A stretch of DNA of 64,000 bases from Hyphomonadaceae bacterium. GTDB lineage: Bacteria > Pseudomonadota > Alphaproteobacteria > Caulobacterales > Aquidulcibacteraceae. Position numbers and translations under genes: made by a program. Below, piece after piece: positions 4,505 through 48,284 of this stretch; within the stretch, counting starts at the first letter, position 1; each line of letters opens with the position of its first letter. Below the pieces are notes generated by a model, which ran no database searches, was not told the origin of the DNA, and saw nothing but the letters and a program-made list of their open reading frames with translations. The DNA is taken from NCBI GenBank assembly GCA_016791365.1, contig JAEUMT010000042.1, positions 1-64,000 of the forward strand, written 5' to 3'.

Positions 4505-4740
4505 CGGCGTTCAAGCACACGATGGCGACCCTGGATCGCGAGCGCGATGCCAAGCGCAATCAGCCAGCACACAACACCGAACGCAAACATACCGTAATAC
4601 AGCCCTTCCGGTCCGGGCAAATCCGATCCCGGCCGTCGGAAAAAATAGAGCGAGCTAAACGCCTCATAACTCCACCACGCCACAAAGCCAGTAGCGCCAA
4701 GGCGCAGCGTGTAGGCGAGAAGGAGCCGAACCAAGCGCAT
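4501..4740 (-). CDS. Small two-segment membrane protein, unknown
   Basis: A 79-residue protein with two clear hydrophobic segments (residues ~7-32 and ~49-68) joined by an aromatic/Pro-Gly loop, and a basic C-terminus ([10 protein letters not shown]). I recognise no family. Its stop codon overlaps the ftsK stop (TTAG read from both strands). Its start is 5 bases after the stop of the 20-codon mini-ORF, so it could be the last member of a leftward run of small envelope genes (6154 to 4501). No strong Shine-Dalgarno is visible. It is likely coding because of the coherent membrane topology, but this is an inference. Confidence 0.55.
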
Positions 4741-4745
4741 GGCGG

Positions 4746-4808
4746 CTAGAACTGCGGCTGCGCGAGCCGACAGGCACCCGCCCGGATCAAAGCCAACAGA
4801 AGGCGCAT
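4746..4808 (-). CDS. 20-residue mini-ORF, relic of the secreted-protein family
   Basis: The complete translation is MRLLLALIRAGACRLAQPQF, preceded by a good ribosome site (GGAGAGACTC before the ATG). Its last 12 residues match the C-terminus of the next upstream gene (RPGVCRRLTQQF) at R, G, C, R, Q and F, and its first residues resemble the beginning of a signal peptide. It looks like a paralogue that lost its whole middle, or a functional micro-protein. It is too short for ordinary gene finders. Confidence 0.35.
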   Translation of the reverse strand: MRLLLALIRAGACRLAQPQF

Positions 4809-4864
4809 GAGTCTCTCCGTATCTCCAAGGGCCACGACCAAATCCTAGCGCCCGGACGTTGTGC

Positions 4865-5257
4865 TCAGAATTGCTGCGTTAGGCGTCTGCACACGCCTGG
4901 ACGGAAGGCCCGGGCGTCACCATTTCCGTAGCTCATTTCGTAGGCGCCGGAGTATCGATTGATCCTCCTGGTGGGCACGCCGCGCATCCCGCACGAAATG
5001 AGTTCAGCCGTGATCTCACACGGAACGCCTTGCGCATCGGGAAACATCGCCGCGGCGTCGGTGACGCTCAACGTCCGCGCCTCCATGTCGACACGCACGA
5101 TTTCGCTGTCGCGAGCCCATTGCCAACCGGGCTCCCCTACCACGGTGAACTCGATTTGGCATTCGAGGAGAAGCGTCTCGGCTGCGGCGTCTCTCGGTGA
5201 GAACAGCAGAGCAGCCGCGAGGGCCAGCCCGAGCGCTCGGAATATCGCGATCCTCAT
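4865..5257 (-). CDS. Small secreted protein, paralogue of 5753-6154
   Basis: A 130-residue exported protein. ATG 5257 was chosen over a longer reading frame because GGAGGAG precedes it and it starts a signal peptide (MRIAIFRALGLALAAALLF, cleavage near DAAAE). The mature part shares with the gene at 5753-6154 an RVD-x5-TL strand, the motif C-x-IT-x3-[IL]-ISCG, an RI[ND]RYSGA[YF] segment and a C-terminal G-x-CR...QF. Four mature cysteines are probably two disulfides. The function is unknown. It sits 17 bases after the stop of the Cys-rich gene at 5275-5652, so the two are probably co-transcribed. Confidence 0.75.
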   Translation of the reverse strand: MRIAIFRALGLALAAALLFSPRDAAAETLLLECQIEFTVVGEPGWQWARDSEIVRVDMEARTLSVTDAAAMFPDAQGVPCEITAELISCGMRGVPTRRINRYSGAYEMSYGNGDARAFRPGVCRRLTQQF

Positions 5258-5274
5258 GGCGGCGAACTCCTCCT

Positions 5275-5652
5275 CTAACTGGGGGTGCACGTCACAGTAT
5301 GAGAGAACGTGGAGACATGTGACGGCGGCGCGAACTGTCGTTCGCAAGCTGCGCGCTGCTCCTCGTAGGTCTGCCCAGCGGAGCCGACGCACACGCCATC
5401 ATTGTAGAGCATGCCCCCAGCCGTCGTGGCCTCCATGCGGCAGTAAAAGGAACGTGCGGGCAAGGAGCCCGTGCAGCGTTGCGAGCAACTCCTGGCCTCG
5501 ATCGCACAGCTCTCATTGTATTGCCCGCCCGAGCAAACGCGCATTTGTTCGAGACAGGCGCTTACACAGACATTTTGATCCTGCGCCATGCTGTTTCCGA
5601 TTGCCAGCAGCATCGCTGCCGCGATCGCCGCGCCAATGATGAGTGCACGCAT
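5275..5652 (-). CDS. Cysteine-rich exported protein, unknown
   Basis: A 125-residue protein with a signal peptide (MRALIIGAAIAAAMLLAIG, cleavage near NSMAQD) and about ten cysteines in the mature part, including CVSACLEQMRVC and SCSQRC. GAGGAG stands 8 bases before the ATG. I recognise no family. The cysteine spacing suggests a disulfide-stabilised periplasmic protein. It lies between two members of a paralogous secreted family but does not itself show the RYSGA motif. The same CxxxC start recurs in the unrelated small gene at 11925-12317 (QCYNDC). Confidence 0.7.
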   Translation of the reverse strand: MRALIIGAAIAAAMLLAIGNSMAQDQNVCVSACLEQMRVCSGGQYNESCAIEARSCSQRCTGSLPARSFYCRMEATTAGGMLYNDGVCVGSAGQTYEEQRAACERQFAPPSHVSTFSHTVTCTPS

Positions 5653-5752
5653 GAGCTGACTCCTCTTCAGCTAGACCAGCAAGAGCCTAGATCGCCCCCC
5701 AGACATCTCCTTGCGCTGGATCAATGGCGCCGTACATCCTTCGGACTGCCGG

Positions 5753-6154
5753 TCAGAATTGACGTTCCTGCACCGCGCGGCACGAAGCGCCCGCCTCCAA
5801 TACGAATGGCGCGCCGGAATAGCCTTGGAACTGCAACCCAAAGGCGCCCGAATAGCGGTCGATGGTCCGATTGGGCCATGTGCCACAGCTAATCGATCTC
5901 TCGGTGATAGTGCATGAGTCTTGTCGCTCGTGGTCACCGTTGGGCCAAGTGTGCGTGAGCGTTGCAGCGTCGAGATCGACTCGAATGGTCTCACGATAGG
6001 GCGCCGGACTCGAACAGCGGCCATCGCCACAGAACCGTCGCGCACCCTCGCACACAAGCGTAATTGAATCTGCCGACGCCGTGGTCGCCATCGATGCGAC
6101 GACACAGAAGATGGCGGCAAACGTCTTCCTTCGATTTTTCCAGCCGCCAGCCAT
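5753..6154 (-). CDS. Small secreted protein, paralogue of 4865-5257
   Basis: A 133-residue exported protein. The start at 6154 follows GGAGG with 6-base spacing and gives a basic-hydrophobic signal (KNRRKTFAAIFCVVASMA, cleavage near ASA-DS). Shared family features are IRVDLDAATLTHT, CTITERSISCG, TIDRYSGAF and a C-terminal CRAVQERQF. An extra Cys-rich insert (RRFCGDGRC) is absent from the paralogue. The function is unknown; an envelope or periplasmic role is inferred only from the signal peptide and cysteines. It is first in a leftward series of small genes and 98 bases from the next. Confidence 0.72.
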   Translation of the reverse strand: MAGGWKNRRKTFAAIFCVVASMATTASADSITLVCEGARRFCGDGRCSSPAPYRETIRVDLDAATLTHTWPNGDHERQDSCTITERSISCGTWPNRTIDRYSGAFGLQFQGYSGAPFVLEAGASCRAVQERQF

Positions 6155-6362
6155 TGCGCGCCTCCGAGAATTACCGCTCACCAGCCCGACGACAGGCGAA
6201 ACTGCGCATGTACGTCTCCAGAGGCGCACGCGCACCAAGACCAGTCGAAGGCTCATTGCTTCTGTTGCGCGAGATCAACGACGTGCTTCTGCTATGGCTC
6301 GCGATCTAGCGAAAAAATCTATCCGCCCCCTCCAGCACCGGCCGTATCATCACGCCGGTCCC

Positions 6363-7142
6363 ATGAACGCTACCGATCCATCATCACCGATCCAACCTGC
6401 CGGCCATAGCTGCAAAGCAGCGACGGCCGGGACGGCGCCGCCCCTTTGGGTGCGTTTGCGCGCCCTGTTTGGCCGCGTCATCGCGGTGATCGGTGCGCCC
6501 GCGATGATCGCGGCGCTGACGCTTGCGCCGCGCCTACGCACCAGCATCGTCCGCCAAATCGCGCTCATCGAAATTCTGGCGCGCAAACTCCTGCTGGCCG
6601 AAGCGGCGTTGGTCGCAACCGCGCCGGCGCCGCAGAGAGCTCCGCAGCTCACCGAAGCCCGCCTGCGCGCCACGGGTCTCTACACGCTGCCGCAACCGTC
6701 TCGCCAAAGGCGCGCGCCTTCGGCGCCGCGCATCATCGATCTCGCCAATCCCGAAACCTGGCCGGCGCGTTTCGCGCTCGCCATTCCGCGCGATCCGCGC
6801 GGGGTTGCGGATCGCTACGCGCCGCGAATCCGCGCGCTTTGGGGCGATTACCATGAACCGGCGCCCGCAATCGAACGCACGCCGCCGCGGCGCAACTCCG
6901 ATGCATTTTTGGTCGCCCGCCGCGCCGAAGCGTTGCGCCGCGTGCTGCACGATCCGACGCCGCACGTCACACGCCTCACGCGCGCCCGCCGCATCAGAGT
7001 CGCGCGATCATATCAAGCCATCCGGCGCTACACCTTCAGAGCGCCGCGCCGTTTCGTTGGCGACCGCTACGACCCCCGGCTTACGCTCGACATTTTCACA
7101 GCCGCGCGGTGTGGGCACGACCTGCTCGTCAACACCAGCTGA
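6363..7142 (+). CDS. Hypothetical basic protein with N-terminal hydrophobic segment
   Basis: A 259-residue protein of unrecognised family. Residues ~30-60 contain a hydrophobic stretch (FGRVIAVIGAPAMIAALTL), and the rest is Arg/Ala/Pro-rich with an ANPETWPARFALAIPRDP-like central segment. ATG 6363 was chosen because upstream codons read as low-complexity sequence overlapping the divergent secreted gene; there is no convincing ribosome site. It lies inside the ftsK-lolA insertion. It could be a membrane-anchored protein of lineage-restricted distribution. Coding is supported mainly by length and the lack of a better gene on the other strand. Confidence 0.55.
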   Translation: MNATDPSSPIQPAGHSCKAATAGTAPPLWVRLRALFGRVIAVIGAPAMIAALTLAPRLRTSIVRQIALIEILARKLLLAEAALVATAPAPQRAPQLTEARLRATGLYTLPQPSRQRRAPSAPRIIDLANPETWPARFALAIPRDPRGVADRYAPRIRALWGDYHEPAPAIERTPPRRNSDAFLVARRAEALRRVLHDPTPHVTRLTRARRIRVARSYQAIRRYTFRAPRRFVGDRYDPRLTLDIFTAARCGHDLLVNTS

Positions 7143-7206
7143 GCCGGAGCGCCGGCGCCCCCGCCGGCATGCCTCACGCACAATTTCAAACCTCAAGCGC
7201 AATCAC

Positions 7207-7228
7207 GCTGAACCGGCCCCGGTTCAGC
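7207..7228. terminator. Hairpin between convergent genes
   Basis: Perfect 10-base arms (GCTGAACCGG / CCGGTTCAGC) around a CC centre lie between two converging stop codons. There is no T-run on either side, so termination by it would be inefficient or Rho-assisted. Confidence 0.35.
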
Positions 7229-7234
7229 GCGCGA

Positions 7235-8145: not shown

Positions 8146-8787
8146 ATGACACACATGAACAGACGTTTCGCCCTTTTGGGTTTGTCCGCCCTCGTGCTTG
8201 CGCCGGCGGCCCATGCCCAGCAAACCACGCCCACCGTGCTCGAAGGCGCTGCGCGCGCCGAGGGCCTGGCGCTCGCCAACCGCTCCTTGAACGCCGTGCA
8301 ACGTCTGCAAGGGCGCTTCCTGCAACAATCGCCCGGCGGCGCCCGCGCCAGCGGCATGTTCTATCTACAGCGGCCGGGACGGCTCAGGTTTGAGTACGAT
8401 CCGCCGGCAACGATGCTGATCGTCGCCGACGGAAGCGTCGTCGCGATGCGCGATACCGAGCTGCGGACCACGGAACGCACGCCCATTCGCTCCACGCCGC
8501 TCAACATTATTCTCGGCCAAACCATCAATCTGGAGCGCGATGCGCGGGTTCTGCGCGTTTCACGCGCCGGCCAATGGCTGATGGTCACGGCGCGTGATCG
8601 CGGCGGCCAAACCGATGGCCAGATCACGCTCCAGTTCTTCGGGCCCAACGCCGAACTCCGCTCCTGGGACGTCATCGACGCGACGGGCGCACGGACGCGC
8701 ATCTCGCTTTCGAACATCACGCAGCCGGCAAGCTTCGACCGCGGCCTCTTCCGCTTGGAAGACATGCTTTCCAACCGCCGCCGCTAG
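8146..8787 (+). CDS. lolA: Outer-membrane lipoprotein carrier LolA family
   Basis: A 213-residue periplasmic protein. It has a signal peptide (RRFALLGLSALVLAPAAHAQ) and then the LolA fold: LNAVQRLQGRFLQQSPGG, SGMFYLQRPGRLRFEYDPP and a late-strand segment. LolA shuttles lipoproteins from the LolCDE complex to the outer membrane. Position supports it: ftsK-lolA-xthA is a common alphaproteobacterial order and xthA is next. Two closely spaced ATGs (8146 and 8155) are possible starts; TAGG precedes the first with short spacing. There is no LolB nearby, as usual in this class. Confidence 0.88.
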   Translation: MTHMNRRFALLGLSALVLAPAAHAQQTTPTVLEGAARAEGLALANRSLNAVQRLQGRFLQQSPGGARASGMFYLQRPGRLRFEYDPPATMLIVADGSVVAMRDTELRTTERTPIRSTPLNIILGQTINLERDARVLRVSRAGQWLMVTARDRGGQTDGQITLQFFGPNAELRSWDVIDATGARTRISLSNITQPASFDRGLFRLEDMLSNRRR

Positions 8788-8980
8788 CGTGAAATGAGGC
8801 AAACAAAGGCAAGGGCTTTCACTAGCGAAACCTTGATTTTTTGCCGGCCGTGTCGTATGTGCAACATGAGCCGCCGCTCATCCCCCTGGATGGCGTCGTC
8901 CCCCCCGCTGACGGATTCAGCGCGGCGGCTTTTGCCGGATCCCCTGCCGGCGAGAATGCGCCCCCTCAAGGCGCGACATG

Positions 8981-9020
8981 GAGGCCCGGTCGCGGACTGC
9001 GAACGGGCCTCTTTGTATTT
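8981..9020 (+). terminator. Intrinsic terminator between lolA and xthA
   Basis: Outer arms GAGGCCCG / CGGGCCTC and inner arms TCGC / GCGA (loop GGACT) are followed by TTTGTATTT. It ends the lolA transcript, or a possible short transcript starting near 8870 (TTGATT-17-TATGTG is upstream). Confidence 0.75.
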
Positions 9021-9049
9021 GTGAGCCGAAGACGGCAGACACCTCATCG

Positions 9050-9841
9050 ATGCTGAAAATCGCCAGTTGGAACATCAACTCCGTGCGCCTGCGGATTGGG
9101 ATGGTTTGCCGCTTCCTGGCGGAAGCGAAGCCTGACGTCCTGTGCTTGCAGGAAATCAAATGCCGCGACGGCGAGTTCCCGTCGAAGGCGTTCAAGGAAG
9201 CCGGCTACAAACACATCCATGTCGTCGGCCAGAAAGGCTGGCACGGCGTTGCGATTGTTTCACGTGTGAAGCTTGAGCCGGTCGAAGCCCCGGCGATCTG
9301 TCCGAAGAAAGAAGCGCGCATCGCGGCGGCGCTGATCGACGGCGTCGAAGTGCACAATCTCTATGTGCCCGCGGGCGCGGATGTGCCCGAGCTGACGAAC
9401 CCGAAGTTCGTCCATAAGCTCAACGTGCTCGATAAAATGAAGACGCTCTACAAAAAGCGCAAAGGCCAAACGCCGACTGTGCTTGTCGGCGATCTCAACG
9501 TCGCGCCGGGCGAGTTCGATGTTTGGAGCCACAAGCAATTGCTCAACGTCGTCTCGCACACGCCTGGCGAGACGGACCGTTTGAACGCGGTGCGCGATCT
9601 TGGCGGCTTTGTTGACCTAGCGCGCACGCACAAGCCTGATCCGGAAAAGCTCTTCACCTGGTGGAGCTATCGCAGCCCGGATTGGACAAAGAACAATCGC
9701 GGCCGCAGGCTGGATCATATCTGGGCGACGACCGATGTGGCTGTGACCTCACAAGCCGAGGCCTTTCATATTCACGTGCCGGTTCGCTCATGGGAACGGC
9801 CGAGCGATCATGTTCCCGTGGTCGCGGGCTTCAAACTCTAG
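9050..9841 (+). CDS. xthA: Exodeoxyribonuclease III
   Basis: A 263-residue Mg2+-dependent AP endonuclease and 3'-5' exonuclease for base-excision repair. It has the EEP-superfamily motifs in order: SWNINSVRLR, LQEIKC (metal Glu), GVAIVSR, VGDLNVAP (Asp-x-Asn), RRLDHIWAT and the terminal ERPSDHVPV (Asp-His pair). The length is normal. ATG 9050 begins right at the conserved LKIASWN strand, and longer frames read through the preceding terminator hairpin. Confidence 0.95.
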   Translation: MLKIASWNINSVRLRIGMVCRFLAEAKPDVLCLQEIKCRDGEFPSKAFKEAGYKHIHVVGQKGWHGVAIVSRVKLEPVEAPAICPKKEARIAAALIDGVEVHNLYVPAGADVPELTNPKFVHKLNVLDKMKTLYKKRKGQTPTVLVGDLNVAPGEFDVWSHKQLLNVVSHTPGETDRLNAVRDLGGFVDLARTHKPDPEKLFTWWSYRSPDWTKNNRGRRLDHIWATTDVAVTSQAEAFHIHVPVRSWERPSDHVPVVAGFKL

Positions 9842-25890: not shown

Positions 25891-27570
25891 ATGAAGTTCA
25901 ATCGCAGATTGGTCTTGGGCGCGGGCGCGGCAGCGATCGCGACCATGGGCGCGGCGTCGGCGGCAACACGCAACACGGGCGGCGGGCGCGCCCATCGCAC
26001 CGCCCTCTCCGCCCTTTCGCGTTACGCCGACCAGCATGTGCGCGATTGGGGTTTGCCGGGGATGACGATTTGCGTCGTCGACCGCGACGGCTATGCCGGG
26101 TTCATCACGACAGGCTTTGCCGACATCGATCAGCGGACACCGGTCGGTCCGGACCATCTTTTTCAGATCGGCTCAATCAGCAAGGTGTTCACCGCGCTGA
26201 CTCTTTATTCAATGTATCAAGAAGGCTCGCTCGCGCCCGCGGCGCGGATACGCAGCGAACTGCCGGACATCCGAATCGCCAATGCCGAAGCCGTAACGCT
26301 GCAGCATCTTCTCGATCACACTTCCGGATTGCCGGGCAATGCACCCGCCGTACCCGATGGCGGCTTGTGGAGCGGGTTCACGCCCGGCCAACACTGGCAC
26401 TACAGCAACACCGGATATGAATTACTCTCGCGCGTTGCCGCCAAGACAGACGGAAAGCAATTTCACGATGCCGTTGAAGCGCGGGTGCTTGGCCCGCTCG
26501 GGATGCGCAATTCACACGCCGGCATTCGTAGCGGCGATCGCGATCGCTACGCGCAAGGCTATGAAACGCTTTACGCTGACCGGCCATCGTTCCGGCCAGG
26601 ACCGCGCGCGCCGGCGCCGTGGGTGAACGTCGAGAGCGGCGCCGGATCGGTTGCGGCGACGTCAGGCGACATGTCGATCTTCCTGCGCTTCTTGCTGGAC
26701 CTGGCGCAGGGACGCGGGGCGCCGGTGCTGTCAGATGCGACAGCACGCGCATTTTTGGCGAATCCGGCCAATGCGCCGGGTTGGTCAGAAACGGCCAAAT
26801 ACGGAAACGGCCTCGCGCGGCCTACGATCAATGAGCGCCAATACCTGCACCACACAGGCGGCATGGTGTCGTTCTCGTCCTCGATGCACGTCGATCCGGA
26901 GGCGGGCGTCGCGGCGTTCGCCTCGAGCAATATCGGCGTCAGTCTCAACTACCGGCCCCGCGACGTCACACTGTACGCGTGCCAATTGTTTAGGACCGCG
27001 CGCGAAGGCATTGATGCGCCCGAGCCAGCGCCGACACAGACAACCGCGGGCGACCCTGCGAAGTTCGCAGGCGTTTACACGAGCGCACCGGGCGAGGCAT
27101 TTGAAATTCGCGGCGCGGGCGGCGGCCAAATCTCAATGCGCCGCAACGGCGTGGACAGCCGCATGCAGAGTTTGGCCGGCGCATTCTTTGTCAGCGCGGA
27201 CGAGCGGTTTGCCAGCACCGGCTTGCTGTTTGAAGCCGACGGCGAAGACATCGCGCGCGCGTGGGCGAACGACGTCGAGTTCGCGCGTGGGCCGGTGCGG
27301 ACGTACCAACAACCGCCGCCTGCGGATGTGCAGCGCCTCGCGGGCATCTATGACAGCGATGATCGCTGGTCGGGGCCGCTTTGGATTATCGCGCGTTCGG
27401 GCAAGTTGTGGCTCAACAATGCTGAACCGCTCACTTTGCTCGACGACGGGTCGTGGCGGCCGGGAACGGACGAGTGGATACCAGAACGCATCCGGTTCGA
27501 CGGCTTCATCGAAGGCCGCCCTACCCGGCTGCTGTTTTCGGGTGCGCCGTTCGTGCGGCGGTTCAGCTAG
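25891..27570 (+). CDS. Serine hydrolase, beta-lactamase class C family, Tat-exported
   Basis: A 559-residue protein. A twin-arginine signal (NRRLVLGAGAAAIATMG) starts it. The catalytic domain has SISK (Ser95, Lys98), YSN at 171-173 and HTGG at 321-324, the three class-C/DD-peptidase motifs. The C-terminal 190 residues are strand-rich and resemble the extra domain found in many esterase/D-aminopeptidase-type members. The substrate is not predictable. GGAGGCGG precedes the start. Its TAG stop shares CTAG with the convergent symporter. Confidence 0.9.
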   Translation: MKFNRRLVLGAGAAAIATMGAASAATRNTGGGRAHRTALSALSRYADQHVRDWGLPGMTICVVDRDGYAGFITTGFADIDQRTPVGPDHLFQIGSISKVFTALTLYSMYQEGSLAPAARIRSELPDIRIANAEAVTLQHLLDHTSGLPGNAPAVPDGGLWSGFTPGQHWHYSNTGYELLSRVAAKTDGKQFHDAVEARVLGPLGMRNSHAGIRSGDRDRYAQGYETLYADRPSFRPGPRAPAPWVNVESGAGSVAATSGDMSIFLRFLLDLAQGRGAPVLSDATARAFLANPANAPGWSETAKYGNGLARPTINERQYLHHTGGMVSFSSSMHVDPEAGVAAFASSNIGVSLNYRPRDVTLYACQLFRTAREGIDAPEPAPTQTTAGDPAKFAGVYTSAPGEAFEIRGAGGGQISMRRNGVDSRMQSLAGAFFVSADERFASTGLLFEADGEDIARAWANDVEFARGPVRTYQQPPPADVQRLAGIYDSDDRWSGPLWIIARSGKLWLNNAEPLTLLDDGSWRPGTDEWIPERIRFDGFIEGRPTRLLFSGAPFVRRFS

Positions 27571-31465: not shown

Positions 31466-32542
31466 CTAGAAGCCGCCGCGCAGACGGCGGATCACGTCAT
31501 CCAATTGCTCAAGCGTCTTGTAGGAGATCTTCACCTCCCCTGCGCCGGCCTTGTCGTTGATCGTCACATCGAGGCCGAGTGCGTTGGAGAGTGATTGCTC
31601 CAGAGCGCGCGTGTCAGCGCTCTTCGCGTCAGCGGATGAGCCGCCGGGCGTGACGCGCGGGCCGTGCTTTTCATCCTTGGCTTGTTGCGCGAGGCGTTCG
31701 ATGTCGCGAACGTTGAGGCCTTCGCTGATCGCCCGTTGCGCCAGGCCGCGCGGATCCGGCGCGGTGAGAATGGCGCGGGCGTGGCCTGAGCTGAGGCGGC
31801 CATCACGCACCATCTCCTGCAGATCGTCCGGCAGCTGCAGCAGACGCAGCATGTTGGCGATATGCGGACGCGACTTGCCGACGGCGTCAGCGATCTCTTG
31901 TTGCGTACGGCCGAAGCGATCGATCAGCGCTTGGAAACCTTGCGCTTCTTCGATCGGGTTCAGGTCCATGCGCTGAACGTTTTCGACGATCGCGATCTCG
32001 AGCACTTCAACTTCGTTGAGCTCGCGGATCACCGCTGGGATCGAGTGCAGACCAGCGCGCTGTGCGGCGCGCCAACGGCGTTCGCCAGCAACGATCTCAT
32101 ACTTGCCGCCGGCGATGGGCCGGACGAGGATCGGTTGCAGGATGCCGTGCGTTTTGATCGACGATGAGAGATCGTTGAGTTCAGCTTCGTCGAAGTGCTT
32201 ACGCGGCTGTTGCGGATTGCGTTGCACCAGATCGATCGGCACCGAACGTGGGCCGTGATCGCCGGCGGCTTCCACCGGTGCAGACGTCGCAACCTGGGGG
32301 GGCGCGGCAGCCACGGGCGGCGCGACCGGCTCATTGGCTGGGATCGGCGCAGGCGCCGCGGCTTGCGTGATGGGCAGCTCGAAGACATTGCGCGGCGGCT
32401 CAATCGGCGCGCGCGGCGGTTCAGGTTGCGGCGCGGGTTGGCCGAACACATTGTTCGCAGGCTTCGGCGTTTCGGTCTTCACCGGTTCGCCCAGCAGAGC
32501 GGAGAGGCCTCGGCCCAGCCCTCGCGGTCTCATGTCGCTCAT
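31466..32542 (-). CDS. parB: Chromosome partitioning protein ParB
   Basis: A 358-residue CTP-dependent clamp that loads at parS and organises the origin region. It has the ParA-activating N-terminus (RGLGRGLSALLGE), a Pro/Ala linker (~25-115), and the CTP-binding domain with GERRWRAAQRAGL and ENVQRMDLNPIEEA. A helix-turn-helix follows (EIADAVGKSRPHIANMLRL), then a C-terminal dimer domain. ATG 32542 follows GAGGG with 6-base spacing. parA lies 93 bases upstream; both run leftward from rsmG. Confidence 0.97.
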   Translation of the reverse strand: MSDMRPRGLGRGLSALLGEPVKTETPKPANNVFGQPAPQPEPPRAPIEPPRNVFELPITQAAAPAPIPANEPVAPPVAAAPPQVATSAPVEAAGDHGPRSVPIDLVQRNPQQPRKHFDEAELNDLSSSIKTHGILQPILVRPIAGGKYEIVAGERRWRAAQRAGLHSIPAVIRELNEVEVLEIAIVENVQRMDLNPIEEAQGFQALIDRFGRTQQEIADAVGKSRPHIANMLRLLQLPDDLQEMVRDGRLSSGHARAILTAPDPRGLAQRAISEGLNVRDIERLAQQAKDEKHGPRVTPGGSSADAKSADTRALEQSLSNALGLDVTINDKAGAGEVKISYKTLEQLDDVIRRLRGGF

Positions 32543-32635
32543 AACGTGCCCTCGTCTCTCAACCGACCCTGATTCGGTATGCTTAAGAATCTGGTGGGAA
32601 ATCCCTACCCATAGGTAAAAGCTGCCTAGTGCCTG

Positions 32636-33424
32636 CTACGCCGCGTTGAGCATCCGCTCGCGTTCGATCAGCTCTTTGGCAAGCTTGATGTAGGCTTTAC
32701 TGCCGGTGGCGTTCTGATCGTAGATGATCGCGGGCAGGCCGTGCGACGGCGCCTCGCTGATACGAACGTTCCGCGGGATGACGGTCTCATAGACCTTATC
32801 CGGGAAGTGCGCCCTCACCTCTTGCGCCACTTGCTCAGAGAGCGTGGTGCGCTTGTCGTACATGGTGAGCACGACGCCTTGAATTTCGAGCGTCTGATTG
32901 AGGTTCACCTTCACCGCGTTGATGGTCGCGACGAGCTGCGCCAAACCTTCGAGCGCGAAATATTCTGTTTGCAACGGCACGAGCACGCCGTTCGCCGCAG
33001 TGAGCGCGTTCACGGTCAATACGTTCAATGACGGTGGGCAATCGATGAGAATGTAGTCGATACCCAGCGTGGACTCGCCGCGAAACTTTTCGATCGCATT
33101 ACGTAGGAAAAACTGCGGTTGCGCTTCGCCCATCAGTTCGCCTTCAACGCCCGACAAACGCGCGTCGCCAGGCGTGATGTACAAATTGGGGACCTTCGTC
33201 GGCAGCACTGCTTTCGATAGCGGCAGCTGACCAACGAGCACGTCGTAGCTGGTGACGTTGCGATCGTGCGGATGGATATCGAGACCGGTCGAGGCGTTGC
33301 CCTGCGGGTCGGTGTCGAAGATCAAGACGCCCTTGCCGGCAGCCGCGAGCGCGGTGCCGAGATTGATCGCGGTCGTCGTCTTGCCTACGCCACCCTTCTG
33401 GTTGGCGATCGCCAAAGTACGCAT
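32636..33424 (-). CDS. parA: Chromosome partitioning ATPase ParA
   Basis: A 262-residue Walker-type ATPase that with ParB moves the origin to the cell pole. The deviant Walker A is KGGVGKTT at 10-17, Walker A' is DTDPQGNAS, and Walker B is IDYILIDCPP. It is chromosomal type: short, no N-terminal DNA-binding extension. The start lies 24 bases after the rsmG stop, consistent with one mnmE-mnmG-rsmG-parA-parB transcript. Confidence 0.97.
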   Translation of the reverse strand: MRTLAIANQKGGVGKTTTAINLGTALAAAGKGVLIFDTDPQGNASTGLDIHPHDRNVTSYDVLVGQLPLSKAVLPTKVPNLYITPGDARLSGVEGELMGEAQPQFFLRNAIEKFRGESTLGIDYILIDCPPSLNVLTVNALTAANGVLVPLQTEYFALEGLAQLVATINAVKVNLNQTLEIQGVVLTMYDKRTTLSEQVAQEVRAHFPDKVYETVIPRNVRISEAPSHGLPAIIYDQNATGSKAYIKLAKELIERERMLNAA

Positions 33425-34544: not shown

Positions 34545-36511
34545 GCACGTTTCCTTTGTTCGCGCTTCACATGCGCCAGCAATGCGGTGAGCGCGCCTGG
34601 CGTGACGCCTTCAATGCGCGAGGCCTGGCCGAGCGTGACCGGTCGCGCATTGGTGAGCTTCTCGCGCACTTCGTTCGAGAGACCGCCGACGACGGCGTAA
34701 TCGAGATCGGGCGAGATGCGGAGATCCTCGTCGCGCTTGAAGGCTTCGACGTCGAGCGCCTGGCGTTCGAGATAGCCCGAATACATGGCGTCGATCTCAA
34801 GCTGCTCACGCGCTTGGCGGCTGAGTGCGTTGAGCTCAGGCCAGATGCCGGCAAGCTGATCGAAGCTGATCGAGGGATACGCCAGCAGCGCCAGCACATC
34901 GCGGCGCACGCCATCCTGATTGACCTTGAGGCCCTGCGCTTGCGCCTGCGCGGGTGTCAATTCGAGGGCGTGCGCCAGTTCGCGCGCCGCTTCGATTTCC
35001 CGCATTTTATCGGCGAATTTGCGCGTGCGCTCCGAACTCACGCAACCAAGCTCGACGCCCTTTGGCGTGAGGCGTTGATCGGCGTTATCGGCGCGGAGGC
35101 TTAACCGGTACTCGGCGCGAGACGTGAACATGCGATAGGGCTCGGTGACGCCGCGCGTGACGAGATCATCGATCATGACGCCGATGTAGCCCTCGGCGCG
35201 CGTCACCTCGAACGGCCCTGCTCCAGACGCGGCGCGTGCGGCGTTGAGGCCAGCGACCAGGCCCTGCGCGGCGGCTTCCTCGTAGCCGGTGGTGCCGTTG
35301 ATCTGGCCGGCGAGGTAGAGGCCGCGAATGCGCTTGGTCTCCAGCGTCGGCATCAGCTCGCGCGGATCGACGTAGTCGTACTCGATCGCATAGGCGTGGC
35401 GTTTGATGACGACGTTCTCGAGTCCCGGGATCGTGCGGATGAAGCGCTCCTGCACATCCTCCGGCAGCGAGGTGCTGATGCCGTTTGGATAGACCGTGTC
35501 GTCGTCCAAGCCTTCAGGTTCGAGGAAGATCTGGTGCGCGGACTTGTCGGCGAAGCGCACGACCTTGTCCTCGATCGACGGGCAATAGCGTGGCCCCCGC
35601 CCGCTGATCGCGCCCGAGTACACCGCGCTCTTCGAAAGCGACTCTTCGATGATCTTGTGGGTCTCCGCCGTCGTGTAAGTGACGCCGCAGGCGACCTGCG
35701 GGTTGGTGATCTTCTCGGTCAGGAACGAGAACGGCGACGGCTCATCGTCGCCCAGCTGCTTCTCCAGTGAAGCCCAATCGATGGAGCTGGATTGGAGCCG
35801 CGCCGGCGTGCCGGTCTTGAGGCGCCCCATCGCGAAACCCGCGCCGTACAAGCGATCCGAGAGCCCGATCGCCGGCGCCTCGCCGTGACGGCCGGCGGGG
35901 ATGCGCTTGTCGCCAATATGGATGACGCCCTTCAGGAACGTGCCGGTGGTGAGGACGATGCGGGGGGCAAGGTATTTTCGACCATCTTGAGTGCGGACAC
36001 CGACCACAACCTGCGCCGCGTAGCCCTTCGACAAGCTCAGGGTGACGCTACTGAGCTCACCTTCGTCTGGACCACCCTCCGGCGTCAGGCTGAGCCTGTC
36101 GAAGCCGGCGGGAACGCGCTCGATGATCAAGTCCTCAACCGCGGCCGCCTCGATCGTCAGCCCCACCTGCCCGCCCAGCGCGGCCTGCATGGCCTCGCGA
36201 TAGAGCTTGCGGTCGGACTGGGCGCGGGGGCCGCGGACGGCGGGGCCTTTGGAGCGGTTGAGCAGCCGGAACTGGATGCCAGCCGCGTCGGCCACCCGGC
36301 CCATGACGCCGTCCAGCGCATCGATCTCGCGGACCAGGTGGCCCTTCCCGAGGCCGCCAATGGCCGGGTTGCAGCTCATCTCGCCGATGGTTTCGAGCTT
36401 GTGAGTCAGCAGCAGCACGCGGGCGCCCAGGCGCGCGGAAGCCGCAGCGGCCTCGCAGCCAGCATGGCCGCCGCCGATGACGATGACGTCGTATGTGCGC
36501 TCAGAACTCAT
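34541..36511 (-). CDS. mnmG: tRNA uridine-5-carboxymethylaminomethyl modification enzyme MnmG
   Basis: A 656-residue FAD enzyme (GidA) that with MnmE builds cmnm5U34 in tRNA wobble positions. It has the FAD motif [12 protein letters not shown] near the N-terminus, [24 protein letters not shown] and the C-terminal helical MnmE-binding domain. It is longer than the E. coli protein (629) because about 27 codons (residues ~136-163) come from a palindromic repeat inserted in frame. I took ATG 36511 ([15 protein letters not shown]); in-frame starts at 36526 and 36550 are possible and none has a strong ribosome site. Confidence 0.96.
36024..36104. repeat. REP-doublet-like palindrome inside mnmG
   Basis: Two inverted copies of a ~24-base unit containing CTTCGACARGCTCAG...TGACGC (36024-36048 and 36082-36104) are separated by 33 bases. 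Total length is 81 bases (27 codons), so the reading frame is kept. The encoded segment reads [11 protein letters not shown]...VTLSLSKGY, absent from typical MnmG. Confidence 0.88.
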
Positions 36512-44976: not shown

Positions 44977-46076
44977 CAGCGCACCTCCCCATGGCCACAT
45001 AGTCCGTACGTTGCGGGGCAGAGCCGACCGCCAGTTTCTGATTGCACCGTACCCGGAGCGCCAAGCGCGCGCTCGACCAAATCAGCCAGCGCGTCGATGA
45101 AGCGCGGATCTGGCCCTAGGGCGGGTGTGCGAAGATAGAAAGACAGCTGCAGCCTTTTCGCAAGCTGGCCGTATTCGAGATCAAGTTCGACCAAGGTCTC
45201 GACGTGCTCCGACACGAACGCGATGGGTGAAACGATGATCCCGGCGCCGTCCTTCGCCGCACGATGGATTTCTTCTTCTGTTGAAGGTCCGATCCATTTC
45301 AGGGGACCAACGCGCGATTGATAACAGATTCGCATGTCCCAATCAGCGGGGAGAAAACCACGTATGGCAGCGGCGCTTCGTTCGACCTGCCACTGATAAG
45401 GATCGCCGCGATCAACCACCTGTTGCGGCAAACCATGCGCGGAAAAGAGCAGGCGTGGCCGCGTCGGCGAACCTGCATTGCGCCAGGTTTGCAAAATCGC
45501 ATCAGCATGGGCCTGTGCGAATTTTGCGCCCGCAGGATAGCAACAGACAGTGGCGGCCGGAAGCTCCGATGCCTTGCGCCACGCTTCAAGAGAAGAGGCT
45601 GTCGTCGTACTGGAAAACTGCGGATAGAGCGGAAGCAGGATGACATCGGTCGCGCCCCACATCGCCGCCGCTTTCGCCACATCTTTGGTATAGGGATGCC
45701 AATAACGCATCGCCGGAAAGCACTTGAACGTCACATTGGTGATGCGCTGAGAGATCACTTGTTCAAGCGCATCAGCTTGTTTTCGAGTTTCAGGCAGAAT
45801 GGGCGAACCGCCGCCCATCAGCGCGTAATTGGCTTTCGCCAATTTCTCACGCGTGCGCGAAATAAGTTGCGCAATGAGGAAACGGAATGGTTGTGGCGCG
45901 CCAATGATCGCTTTGTCGTTGAAGAGATTGAACAGAAACGGACGAACGGATTCCTGTCGGTCCGGTCCGCCAAGGTTGAAAAGAATGATCGCGACCCTGC
46001 GCGAGGTCATGACGCGCAAACCCGGACCTTTAGCGGTTTCAGGGGAGGGTGTGTCTTTGAAGGAGATGGCGGTCAT
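44976..46076 (-). CDS. hemH: Ferrochelatase HemH
   Basis: A 366-residue enzyme inserting Fe2+ into protoporphyrin IX. It has VAIILFNLGGPD, the catalytic His in LLFSAHGLPQQ, the QSRVGPLKWIGPSTEE segment and Glu in FVSEHVETL. The C-terminal LCPATYGLCGHGEVR carries two cysteines in a Cys-x6-Cys pattern, reminiscent of the 2Fe-2S cluster tail of some bacterial ferrochelatases; cluster binding is not proven here. It overlaps hemE by 4 bases and hemJ by 1. Confidence 0.96.
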   Translation of the reverse strand: MTAISFKDTPSPETAKGPGLRVMTSRRVAIILFNLGGPDRQESVRPFLFNLFNDKAIIGAPQPFRFLIAQLISRTREKLAKANYALMGGGSPILPETRKQADALEQVISQRITNVTFKCFPAMRYWHPYTKDVAKAAAMWGATDVILLPLYPQFSSTTTASSLEAWRKASELPAATVCCYPAGAKFAQAHADAILQTWRNAGSPTRPRLLFSAHGLPQQVVDRGDPYQWQVERSAAAIRGFLPADWDMRICYQSRVGPLKWIGPSTEEEIHRAAKDGAGIIVSPIAFVSEHVETLVELDLEYGQLAKRLQLSFYLRTPALGPDPRFIDALADLVERALGAPGTVQSETGGRLCPATYGLCGHGEVR

Positions 46077-47113
46077 ACGCCAGCCTTCACCACTTTGATC
46101 AATCGCTCGAGATTTTCCGGCGTCGCTTGCGGTGTGATGCCATGTCCAAGATTGAAGATGTGCGGCGCGCTCTTGAAGCTGTGCATCACATCACGTGTGG
46201 CGCGATCAAGTGCTTCACCACCAACGATGAGGACTTGCGGATCCAAATTCCCTTGCAGCGGCATACGCTCCGGCGCGACCTGAATAGCGAATTCAGCCGG
46301 CGTTTGCGTATCAATACCTAACGCGGTGACGCCGGTCTTATGCGCATAGGCGCCCAATTGCGCGCCCGAGCCACGCGGAAAGCCGATGATCGGAACTGAA
46401 ACGCCGAGTTCCCGCAGTCGATTCACAAGCTTGCGTGTCGGCTCCAACACGACACGTTGGAACTGGTGTGGCGTTAGACCCTCGGCCCAGCTCTCGAATA
46501 TTTGCACACAATCGGCGCCTGCGCTCACTTGCGCCGCTAGGTGCTGCGCGCTCATTTCAACGAGCACCGAAAGCAAGTCATCGACCTCTTCAGGGCGTTC
46601 ATAGATCGCGCGGCGAGCGCGGTCTTTCTCGCCGCCTTCGCCCTGGAGCATATAGGTAGCAACTGTCCACGGGCCGCCGCAAAAACCAATTAGCGCGATG
46701 TCGTCAGGGATCGCGGCTCTAATCCTCTCAACCGCCTCATAGACAGGCGCAAGCCGCTGAATTCCGCGGGTCACATCATCGAAGCGCCAGGTCTCCTCCT
46801 CAATTAGAGGACTAAGACGCGGACCTTCGCCTTCAACGAACCAAACTTTCCGGCCAAGCGCATCAGGCACAACCAGGATGTCCGAAAAGAGGATCGCCGC
46901 ATCAAGCGGATAGCGCCGTAAGGGCTGCATCACTGCTTCAGTCGCCAGAGCAGGGGAGTAGCAGAACTCCAGGAAGTTTTTTGAGCGCGTTCGCAATTCT
47001 CTGTACTCAGGCAGATAGCGCCCAGCCTGGCGCATGATCCAAACCGGCGGAGGATCCACTCGCTCTCCGCTTAGAACGCGTAGCAATGCGGGAACTTTTT
47101 TCCGATCCGACAT
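46073..47113 (-). CDS. hemE: Uroporphyrinogen decarboxylase HemE
   Basis: A 346-residue enzyme making coproporphyrinogen III. It has PPVWIMRQAGRYLPEYRELR at the start (catalytic Arg), FSDILVVPDALG (Asp) and IGFCGGPWTVATYMLQG. ATG 47113 follows GGAAGAGAG; a frame extending to 47203 would run into the origin region and is not used. It is first of the hemE-hemH-hemJ operon, transcribed away from the putative replication origin, as in Caulobacter. Confidence 0.97.
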   Translation of the reverse strand: MSDRKKVPALLRVLSGERVDPPPVWIMRQAGRYLPEYRELRTRSKNFLEFCYSPALATEAVMQPLRRYPLDAAILFSDILVVPDALGRKVWFVEGEGPRLSPLIEEETWRFDDVTRGIQRLAPVYEAVERIRAAIPDDIALIGFCGGPWTVATYMLQGEGGEKDRARRAIYERPEEVDDLLSVLVEMSAQHLAAQVSAGADCVQIFESWAEGLTPHQFQRVVLEPTRKLVNRLRELGVSVPIIGFPRGSGAQLGAYAHKTGVTALGIDTQTPAEFAIQVAPERMPLQGNLDPQVLIVGGEALDRATRDVMHSFKSAPHIFNLGHGITPQATPENLERLIKVVKAGV

Positions 47114-47136
47114 TGGCTCTCTTCCAAAATCTAAAT

Positions 47137-47151
47137 TTGAATCCTGATTAA
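47137..47151. promoter_or_regulatory. CtrA-like binding site overlapping a GANTC site
   Basis: TTGA-N7-TTAA, one mismatch from TTAA-N7-TTAA, lies 24 bases upstream of the hemE start within the origin region. GAATC at 47139-47143 overlaps it, so methylation by CcrM could matter. Confidence 0.55.
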
Positions 47152-47195
47152 TGAGGACTCGTTGTTGATGGGACTTATTTTGCGGGACAAGATTC

Positions 47196-47204
47196 TTGTC
47201 CACA
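47196..47204 (+). promoter_or_regulatory. DnaA box
   Basis: TTGTCCACA, 8/9 to TTATCCACA. It is part of a 17-base inverted repeat (GGACAAGA-T-TCTTGTCC, 47185-47201) and is followed by TTATCCCCT. Confidence 0.65.
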
Positions 47205-47296
47205 CCTTATCCCCTGACTTGTCCCTTTCGCGATGCGGCGGAATTGTCTTTGGTCCGAAGGGGTTGAGCGACGCGGTCTGTGGTCGCGATTCCATT

Positions 47297-47305
47297 TCGT
47301 CCACA
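47297..47305 (+). promoter_or_regulatory. Weak DnaA box
   Basis: TCGTCCACA, 7/9 to the consensus, in the middle of the origin region. Confidence 0.45.
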
Positions 47306-47417
47306 ATGCCGCGCTGTGAGCAAGGCTTGGAGGAATCGCCCCGGAGGAGAAGTGAAATCCGCGGAGGGGTGGCTGTTCGTTCTCTTTCATGCGTTTTCCC
47401 GCCTCTCACCCAACAGC

Positions 47418-47426
47418 TTGTCCACA
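47418..47426 (+). promoter_or_regulatory. DnaA box
   Basis: A second exact TTGTCCACA, same orientation, 28 bases before the ppsR start. Confidence 0.6.
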
Positions 47427-47453
47427 ATCCGAACTGGCCTGATATGTGAGCCC

Positions 47454-48284
47454 ATGACGCACGCGCGGCTTGCCATCTATGCCAACTTCCACCTGGTCTC
47501 CGACTCGACGGGGGAAACGTTGGCTGGCGTCCTCCGCGCCACCTGCGCCCAGTTCGATAATATCATGCCGGTGGAGCACTCGTACTTTCTGGTGCGCTCC
47601 GCACGACAACTTGAACGTGTGTTGACGGAAATCGCCGCGGCGCCTGGCGTTGTCATGTTCACGCTCTCGAACCTGGAGCATCGAGCGCTGCTTGAGGATG
47701 CTTGCCGCGAGATGGATATGCCTTGCGTTGCCGTCTTGGATCCGGTGCTCGATACGACCTCACGCTATCTCGGCGTGGAGATGAATCATCGGGTCGGCAA
47801 TCCCCGCAAACTCAACGCGGAATACTTCAAGCGGATCGATGCGCTCGATTTTGCGATGTATCACGACGACGGCCAGCAGCATGTAGATCTGGTGAGTGCG
47901 GACGTAATTTTGGTCGGAGTTAGCAGGACGTCAAAAACGCCTACCTGCGTGTATCTCGCGCACCGTGGCGTGAAAGCCGCGAATGTGCCCATGGTGCCTG
48001 GCGTGCCTTTGCCCCCGGAGCTGTTTACAAAAGAGGGGCCGCTCGTCGTCGGCCTGCTTATCTCCGCTGATCGCCTCATTCACATCAGGCGCAATCGCTT
48101 GGCGTCAATGAAAGAAACGCGCGCCGGCAGCTATACTGATGAGGATGCTGTGCGCCGTGAAGTTATGGATGCGCAGAAATTGTTTGAGCGGGAAGGGTGG
48201 CCGACGATTGATGTTTCACGACGCTCTATCGAAGAAACCGCGGCGGCAGTGCTGAATTTATTGGCGGAGCATCGCGAAGCGTGA
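47454..48284 (+). CDS. ppsR: Pyruvate, water dikinase / PPDK regulatory protein (DUF299)
   Basis: A 276-residue bifunctional ADP-dependent kinase and Pi-dependent pyrophosphorylase that switches PEP synthase or pyruvate-phosphate dikinase. It has FHLVSDSTGETL near the start, the P-loop GVSRTSKTP at 155-163, and NRLASMKETRAGSYTD near the C-terminus. ATG 47454 fits the family; upstream codons belong to the origin region. The target (PPDK or PEP synthase) is not in the window. It is the first gene right of the origin and is coupled to maf by a 4-base overlap. Confidence 0.93.
   Translation: MTHARLAIYANFHLVSDSTGETLAGVLRATCAQFDNIMPVEHSYFLVRSARQLERVLTEIAAAPGVVMFTLSNLEHRALLEDACREMDMPCVAVLDPVLDTTSRYLGVEMNHRVGNPRKLNAEYFKRIDALDFAMYHDDGQQHVDLVSADVILVGVSRTSKTPTCVYLAHRGVKAANVPMVPGVPLPPELFTKEGPLVVGLLISADRLIHIRRNRLASMKETRAGSYTDEDAVRREVMDAQKLFEREGWPTIDVSRRSIEETAAAVLNLLAEHREA

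What the first reader, a model, noticed from the sequence alone, without database searches (positions are those of the whole stretch)
47114..47453. Likely chromosomal origin with CtrA and CcrM features
The hemE / DUF299 gap is the known location of Caulobacter Cori. It has two exact TTGTCCACA nonamers, weaker boxes, an AT-rich stretch next to a TTGA-N7-TTAA CtrA-like site that overlaps a GANTC site, and five GANTC sites in 340 bp. parAB lies 14 kb away. Together this suggests cell-cycle-controlled initiation.
Basis: partly seen in the sequence, partly recalled or inferred. Interest (0 to 1): 0.7.

Follow-up and report, generated by a model that had tools for sequence, protein, structure and literature searches.

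The report
Chromosome replication origin beside hemE
This 340-base gap between two conserved genes is very probably where the chromosome of this Caulobacter relative starts to replicate, at the place already known from its cousins; it is mostly ordinary, except that the DNA strand-bias signal expected to flip there flips about 38,000 bases away.

Summary
The hemE/ppsR (DUF299) gap holds two exact TTGTCCACA boxes, the only close pair among 21 TTRTCCACA in the genome, five GANTC sites and the window's most AT-rich 60-mer. A profile of the gap from 30 congeners hits the genome once (E 4e-65; next E 0.09) and lies upstream of ppsR in 30 of 30 congeners and five genomes of four other genera. CcrM-, GcrA- and CtrA-type genes exist. 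So: a hemE-type alphaproteobacterial origin, a new member of a known kind. Three GANTC positions are nearly invariant; the CtrA-like site is not (6 of 30 species, no perfect site here), so CtrA control is unproven. The closest complete relative shows the same offset; nine of ten other congeners outside the window's clade flip nearer, with collinear genes where compared. Nothing origin-like was found at 8,967, and in Hyphomonas neptunium skew also failed while read depth peaked at hemE. The offset is real and unexplained; a past or second initiation site is not excluded.

The parts
46073..47113 (-). hemE, uroporphyrinogen decarboxylase; left flank of the origin
   Evidence: TIGR01464, 371 bits, cut-off 303
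47114..47453 (.). putative chromosomal replication origin (hemE/ppsR intergenic region)
   Evidence: sequence profile R1 of 30 congeners (this one included): one significant hit in the genome, 47126-47454, E 3.9e-65
47122..47181 (.). AT-rich stretch, candidate DNA-unwinding element
   Evidence: 68% AT, highest of any 60-mer in the 64 kb window; alignment columns 1-70 average 61% AT in 30 species against 42% in the rest
47137..47151 (+). TTGA-N7-TTAA, imperfect CtrA-like site overlapping GANTC
   Evidence: TT[AG]A-N7-TTAA in the first 60 bases of the gap in only 6 of 30 species
47156..47167 (+). conserved block GACTCGTTGTTG with a GANTC site
   Evidence: exact in 26 of 30 species; GANTC kept in 28 of 30 by eye on the alignment
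47185..47201 (.). inverted repeat GGACAAG-ATT-CTTGTCC with GANTC at its centre, overlapping DnaA box 1
   Evidence: covariation score above all 500 shuffles, but the number of pairs with two-sided change (3) is not above the shuffle mean (3.4): suggestive only
47196..47204 (+). DnaA box 1, TTGTCCACA
   Evidence: differs from TTGTCCACA in most congeners
47207..47215 (+). weak DnaA-like box TTATCCCCT, in tandem with box 1
   Evidence: majority sequence CTTATCCCCA over 30 species
47287..47292 (+). conserved CGATTC (GANTC)
   Evidence: GATTC columns invariant in 30 of 30; CGATTC in 26 of 30
47297..47305 (+). weak DnaA-like box TCGTCCACA
   Evidence: not conserved
47332..47338 (+). conserved GGAATCG (GANTC)
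   Evidence: columns invariant in 30 of 30
47411..47426 (+). conserved CAACAGCTTGTCCACA containing DnaA box 2 (47418-47426)
   Evidence: CTTGTCCACA exact in 24 of 30, CTTG[TC][CT]CACA in 29 of 30
47454..48284 (+). ppsR (DUF299/COG1806); right flank of the origin
   Evidence: NF003742, 322 bits; found in 60 of 60 family genomes
31466..33424 (-). parB (31466-32542) and parA (32636-33424)
   Evidence: TIGR00180 203 bits; ParA-type hits
8788..9049 (.). gap between a lolA-like gene (named by eye) and xthA where the cumulative GC skew of the contig turns (minimum 8,967); not origin-like

Best explanation
The gap 47114-47453 is the chromosomal replication origin. Inferred mechanism: DnaA binds the box pair and the tandem weak boxes, opens the AT-rich stretch next to hemE and loads the helicase, so that two forks leave, one through hemE/rho/parAB and one through ppsR/aroE. 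The conserved GANTC sites would be fully methylated by CcrM before initiation and hemi-methylated after fork passage, which could tie initiation or local transcription to the cell cycle. Shown here: the sequence features, their conservation, uniqueness in the genome, presence of the regulator genes. Inferred: initiation itself, unwinding, methylation effect. CtrA repression here is possible but not supported. The GC-skew flip 38 kb away is taken as a clade-specific compositional property of the segment, cause unknown, not as the site of initiation.
For: Synteny hemE-gap-ppsR as in Caulobacter Cori (PMC1914354, passages). Only close pair of strong DnaA boxes in the genome. Profile R1: one significant hit in the genome, next 12.4 bits; 30 of 30 congeners and five genomes of four other genera of the family, immediately upstream of ppsR. 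The gap ranks first for a combined (arbitrarily weighted) DnaA/GANTC/AT score in 13 of 13 genomes over 65-78 kb each; for boxes alone nothing is better in 12 of 13. Most AT-rich 60-mer of the window. CcrM-type (6pbd, E 1.5e-167), GcrA and CtrA genes present. The six species with ppsR most like this one (91-100% identity, itself included) keep box 2 exactly. Genes diverge from the gap: rho, hemJ-like, hemH, hemE leftward; ppsR, aroE and the ORFs between and after them rightward. Hyphomonas neptunium: skew, dnaA and box searches unclear, marker frequency peaked close to hemE (PMC6650430, passages).
Against: GC-skew minimum at 8,967 in the 144 kb of the contig read; in the closest complete relative G032 the minimum of the contiguous 400 kb read is 36 kb from ppsR. 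With coding orientation modelled, a flip exactly at ppsR start is rejected (2 x delta log-likelihood above 4) in 9 of 13 genomes, including this one (30.2). In 15 orthologs between -39 and -10 kb the skew differs systematically between congeners. No perfect CtrA site. No IHF-like site at one mismatch or fewer. In one of 13 genomes (G045) another window has more DnaA boxes. No read depth or experiment available.
Confidence: 0.85

Rival explanations
1. In the window's clade initiation has moved to, or also happens near, the gap upstream of xthA about 38 kb from hemE, and the hemE gap is an older or second origin kept by selection.
For: The cumulative skew turns at the start of xthA in G000, G032 and G045 and about 4 kb beyond it in G046. 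In 15 orthologs between -39 and -10 kb the 4-fold skew of G000, G032 and G045 exceeds that of five near-flip species by 0.20, 14 of 15 positive, Wilcoxon p 1.8e-4 (the five were chosen, the other five genomes were left out), with gene order collinear in G000, G032 and G052. Strand-biased octamers are near zero across -38 to 0 kb in G000, G032, G045 and G046 taken together.
Against: No TTRTCCACA near it; for the combined box/GANTC/AT score the hemE gap is first in all four genomes. The xthA gap carries a block conserved in all 13 genomes, so it is not a clade-specific origin. The hemE gap is conserved in the same species. Best flip positions scatter from -39 to +10 kb, the latter the edge of the grid, rather than falling in two classes. 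On the tree G046 groups with G050, whose minimum is at -23 kb.
Confidence: 0.1
2. The hemE/ppsR gap is only a conserved regulatory region (hemE and ppsR promoters, perhaps a CcnA-like small RNA) bound by DnaA and methylated by CcrM; the origin lies elsewhere.
For: Divergent promoters are expected here; a small RNA, CcnA, lies inside Caulobacter Cori (PMC8959179, passages); TGATATG in 22 of 30 gaps; an inverted repeat with some covariation.
Against: DnaA-box pair with the window's most AT-rich 60-mer, unique in the genome, at the location of origins placed experimentally in two related genera. RNAalifold finds no pair with compensation on both sides among its 15 pairs over the gap.
Confidence: 0.04
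3. Origin at dnaA.
For: The textbook place in many bacteria.
Against: dnaA is on another contig (C4:343016) and 100 to 228 kb from ppsR in the eight congeners where both lie on one contig (G031, G032, G033, G034, G046, G050, G052, G053; computed, with contig lengths for G052 and G033, taken as circular); no TTRTCCACA on contig C4; the skew minimum of the stretches read is not there in G032 or G052.
Confidence: 0.01

Closest known systems
Caulobacter crescentus Cori (between hemE CC_3763 and COG1806/DUF299 CC_0001)
   Same: same flanking genes, DnaA boxes, AT-rich stretch, GANTC sites; ctrA, ccrM and gcrA in the genome
   Different: Cori has five CtrA sites centred on TTAA-N7-TTAA (PMC1914354, passages); here none perfect and one imperfect, not conserved in the genus. 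In C. crescentus dnaA is close to the origin (recalled); here it is far.
Hyphomonas neptunium origin (marker-frequency peak close to hemE, parAB about 7 kb away; PMC6650430, passages)
   Same: origin near hemE with parAB close; GC skew did not give a clear answer
   Different: here the DnaA-box pair is clear, parAB is 14-16 kb away, and the skew flip is sharp but displaced
hemE-flanked origins of Rickettsia and Wolbachia relatives (PMC1914354, passages)
   Same: hemE as flank, DnaA boxes, few or no CtrA sites in some species
   Different: low-GC intracellular bacteria; IHF sites reported there, none convincing here

Membership tests
hemE/COG1806-flanked alphaproteobacterial origin | lies between hemE and DUF299/COG1806 | tested here: met
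hemE/COG1806-flanked alphaproteobacterial origin | cluster of DnaA boxes | tested here: met
   two exact and weaker boxes; only close pair in the genome; 29 of 30 congeners keep CTTG[TC][CT]CACA
hemE/COG1806-flanked alphaproteobacterial origin | AT content above average, AT-rich stretch | tested here: met
   gap 47% AT against 37% window mean; best 60-mer 68%
hemE/COG1806-flanked alphaproteobacterial origin | no other region of the genome resembles it | tested here: met
   profile search of own genome, second hit E 0.09; box pattern
hemE/COG1806-flanked alphaproteobacterial origin | IHF site | tested here: inconclusive
   four matches at two mismatches in the gap, 158 at two or fewer in the window; none in the gap at one or fewer; consensus recalled
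hemE/COG1806-flanked alphaproteobacterial origin | replication starts there | not testable with these tools
   no reads, no experiment
CtrA-gated origin in the strict C. crescentus sense | several TTAA-N7-TTAA sites spread over the origin | tested here: not met
   0 perfect sites in the gap; 7 places in the genome against 10 for the reversed control; imperfect site in 6 of 30 species, a perfect one in 1 of 30 gaps, G036
CtrA-gated origin in the strict C. crescentus sense | ctrA gene present | tested here: met
   NF045991 426 bits over cut-off 350; 4qpj E 1.3e-57
Origin with CcrM sites | GANTC sites conserved in the origin and ccrM in the genome | tested here: met
   GATTC and GGAATCG invariant in 30 of 30, mean 4.4 GANTC per gap; RAMA domain 69 bits over 35, NF050803 611 bits, below its cut-off of 830, 6pbd E 1.5e-167
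Origin placed by GC skew | cumulative GC-skew minimum at the site | tested here: not met
   minimum at 8,967, 38 kb away; displaced in the 12 congeners read too

The most novel reading that the evidence does not exclude
Within one genus, without gene rearrangement, the place where the two replication directions part has moved by up to about 40 kb: in the window's clade the hemE origin is accompanied or replaced by initiation near the RNA-like locus upstream of xthA, leaving a 38-kb zone replicated in both directions and a conserved but secondary hemE origin.
Probability: 0.1. Interest if true: 0.65.

Novelty: new member of a known kind. Interest (0 to 1): 0.33.

Why it matters
It gives a well-bounded origin, with conserved elements in 30 species, for a genus whose named records here are metagenome assemblies, and shows which elements last: box 2, three GANTC positions and an AT-rich stretch, but not the CtrA site. 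It also warns that GC skew can misplace an origin by tens of kilobases in this order, and the displaced flip among collinear relatives is a testable case of what sets strand bias near an origin.

Tried and rejected
Origin at dnaA: rejected. Inversion of the 9-47 kb segment as the cause of the skew offset: rejected, gene order and orientation are collinear in G000, G032 and G052 (the other congeners were not compared gene by gene for order). A DnaA-box cluster at the skew minimum: not found. Rfam: no family at gathering threshold in the window; 8780-9060 at a relaxed threshold gave only a chance-level mir-128 match, so calling that locus 6S-like is recollection, not a database match. Structured RNA over the whole gap: no compensated pairs. 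parS: none in the 144 kb of this genome read at two mismatches or fewer to the consensus; a looser core search found one 11.4-12.9 kb on the hemE side in 7 of 13 genomes, not in this one. Recent substitutions were not polarised: I judged the nearest relatives too distant (91-95% identity at ppsR), without a calculation. Paper searches (listings, of which one search listed 10 of 640 and one search listed 12 of 21) showed no description of this genus's origin or of a skew flip moving among collinear congeners; they cover only the held library. Limits of the skew analysis: the ortholog table keeps genes found in at least 9 of the 12 other genomes and lying no further than +18 kb (34 rows), with values blank below 25 G+C at 4-fold sites; my simple gene caller left -2.5 to +1.4 kb of this genome empty (hemE, ppsR and neighbours), so the bases nearest the gap rest on whole-sequence skew; the five comparison species were chosen after and five genomes were left out of it; the octamers were trained on G032 arms on the assumption that its origin lies near 2.0 Mb. 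Names given by eye, not by a call: lolA, DUF4956, maf, coaE, dnaQ, Hda.

Full report
What was checked. The window is the first 64 kb of a 157.6 kb contig of a 3.46 Mb draft genome in 65 contigs. Of 17 related named loci, 16 are metagenome-assembled records labelled Hyphomonadaceae, Caulobacteraceae, Caulobacterales, Alphaproteobacteria or Proteobacteria, and one is a distant Burkholderiaceae record. Sixty genomes of the same family, 30 of them of the same genus (this one included), were searched and all have ppsR.

More than chance. TTRTCCACA occurs 21 times in the genome; the two in the gap are 222 bp apart and the next closest pair on one contig is 12.4 kb apart. Five GANTC in 340 bp is the highest count of any such slot in the window and unlikely at the local non-coding rate (P 4.8e-4). 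The most AT-rich 60-mer of the window lies in the gap, next to hemE. Over 65-78 kb in each of 13 congeners, a combined score of boxes, GANTC and AT puts this gap first in 13 of 13; for boxes alone nothing is better in 12 of 13, the exception being G045; for AT alone the gap is unremarkable in G053 (the weights of the combined score are arbitrary).

Conservation. I aligned the gap of 30 congeners. Fixed or nearly fixed are GACTCGTTGTTG (26 of 30), GATTC (30 of 30), GGAATCG (30 of 30) and box 2, CTTG[TC][CT]CACA (29 of 30). Box 1 varies but is followed by a weak box whose majority form is TTATCCCCA. The first 70 columns are AT-rich in the genus (61% against 42%). A sequence profile of the alignment has one significant hit in this genome (E 3.9e-65) and next a 12-bit match. 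In a scan of 299 genomes of the order, 88 had a match at E of 1 or below: all 30 of the genus (which built the profile), five genomes of four other genera of the family lying immediately upstream of ppsR (E 2e-11 to 4e-5), and 53 others, the best E 4.3e-5 (G125), whose position relative to ppsR I did not check; 211 had none (run with stricter filters; positions compared). In 20 family genomes outside the genus the same gap carries variable boxes and, in some, perfect CtrA sites.

Regulators. GcrA (PF07750, 175 bits over 27), a CcrM-type methylase (RAMA 69 bits over 35; 6pbd E 1.5e-167) and CtrA (NF045991 426 bits over 350; 4qpj) are encoded. The NCBIfam CcrM and GcrA models score below their curated cut-offs (611 against 830, 205 against 280). 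The CtrA-like site in the gap is imperfect, its form occurs in 6 of 30 species, and perfect TTAA-N7-TTAA is not enriched in the genome (7 places, control 10). So CcrM control is anatomically plausible; CtrA control is not supported.

The skew problem. It is elsewhere: 8,967. In the closest complete relative, G032, the minimum of the contiguous 400 kb lies 36 kb from ppsR on the same side; 20 further sampled stretches fit one flip near 2.0 Mb, with 8 of 9 negative between 190 and 1,730 kb and 9 of 10 positive from 2,300 kb on. In 13 congeners the local minimum lies 6 to 38.5 kb from ppsR, always on the hemE side. After fitting a coding-orientation term at 4-fold sites, the best flip ranges from -39 to +10 kb (the edge of the grid); a flip at the start of ppsR is rejected in 9 of 13 and accepted in 4 (G052, G034, G053, G056). 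The ftsK-like ortholog at -45 kb is negative in all 13; xthA at -38.5 kb is positive only in G000, G032, G045 and G046. In 15 orthologs between -39 and -10 kb G000, G032 and G045 exceed five near-flip species by 0.20 on average, 14 of 15 positive, p 1.8e-4; right of the gap the difference is smaller but also positive (0.07, 11 of 13, p 0.005); between -10 and 0 kb it is 0.07 on 4 genes. Gene order is collinear in G000, G032 and G052, so inversion does not explain it. On a 28-protein tree of the 13, G000, G032 and G045 form one clade, while G046 groups with G050, whose minimum is at -23 kb. A second measure, octamers enriched on the leading strand of distal arms of G032, gives for G000, G032, G045 and G046 together values of -0.03 to 0.13 between -38 and 0 kb, against -0.34 to the left and 0.25-0.37 to the right; in the other nine genomes it climbs from -0.25 and crosses zero between about -16 and 0 kb. 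In an outgroup genus (G005, 80 kb read) the minimum is 9.8 kb away, again on the hemE side.

Reading. The skew turns sharply at the gap before xthA, but nothing there looks like an origin: no TTRTCCACA, and a block conserved in all 13 genomes that looks to me like a 6S-type RNA gene, which Rfam does not confirm. The hemE gap keeps its elements in the same clade. In Hyphomonas neptunium bioinformatic markers including GC skew gave no clear result and marker frequency pointed to hemE (PMC6650430, passages read); GC skew was also reported not predictive in several alphaproteobacteria (PMC1914354, passages). I therefore keep the hemE gap as the origin (0.85) and record the displaced flip as real and unexplained. 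dnaA lies on another contig, about 131 kb from the gap if the genome is collinear with G032.

Small structural points. GGACAAG-ATT-CTTGTCC at 47185-47201 is an inverted repeat with a GANTC in the middle, overlapping box 1. Its covariation score exceeds all 500 shuffles, but the number of pairs with two-sided change does not exceed the shuffle mean, so it is only suggestive. The invariant GATTC and GAATC, 40 bp apart, are complementary, as any such pair of GANTC sites would be. GANTC sites are already reported in the C. crescentus origin and those of close relatives (PMC3973325, passages), and a small RNA gene lies within Cori (PMC8959179, passages).

Verdict. A hemE-type alphaproteobacterial origin: already known as a kind, new as a member. 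Interest is modest and comes mainly from the displaced skew flip.

Noticed in passing
window 8788-9049: The gap before xthA holds a block conserved in all 13 genomes aligned, with a promoter-like stretch and a terminator-like hairpin; it looks like a 6S-type RNA gene (recollection), but Rfam gives no match.
   Followed up: partly
window 9000-47113: GC skew of the 9-47 kb segment is positive although it lies left of the presumed origin; in some collinear congeners the same genes have lower or opposite skew.
   Followed up: yes
L017 and window start: Compared with G032, about 56 kb seem to lie between the end of contig C4 (with dnaA) and the start of contig C49, presumably on other contigs.
   Followed up: no
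L003 (G000:C4:302918-303256): A second, weak DnaA-domain match (20.7 bits, below the cut-off of 23), perhaps an Hda-like protein.
   Followed up: no
window about 34550-36050: parS-like palindromes lie 11.4-12.9 kb on the hemE side in 7 of 13 congeners, but none was found in this genome, G032 or G045: the clade may have a diverged parS.
   Followed up: partly
window 4505-7230: Between ftsK and the next conserved gene lie about 2.7 kb of short ORFs; those of at least 150 codons gave no tblastn row at E 1e-30 in the G032 or G052 stretches.
   Followed up: no
window 25891-27570: A gene of the class C beta-lactamase/AmpH fold, scoring far below the curated cut-offs in the 25 best families shown; probably not a resistance gene.
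   Followed up: no
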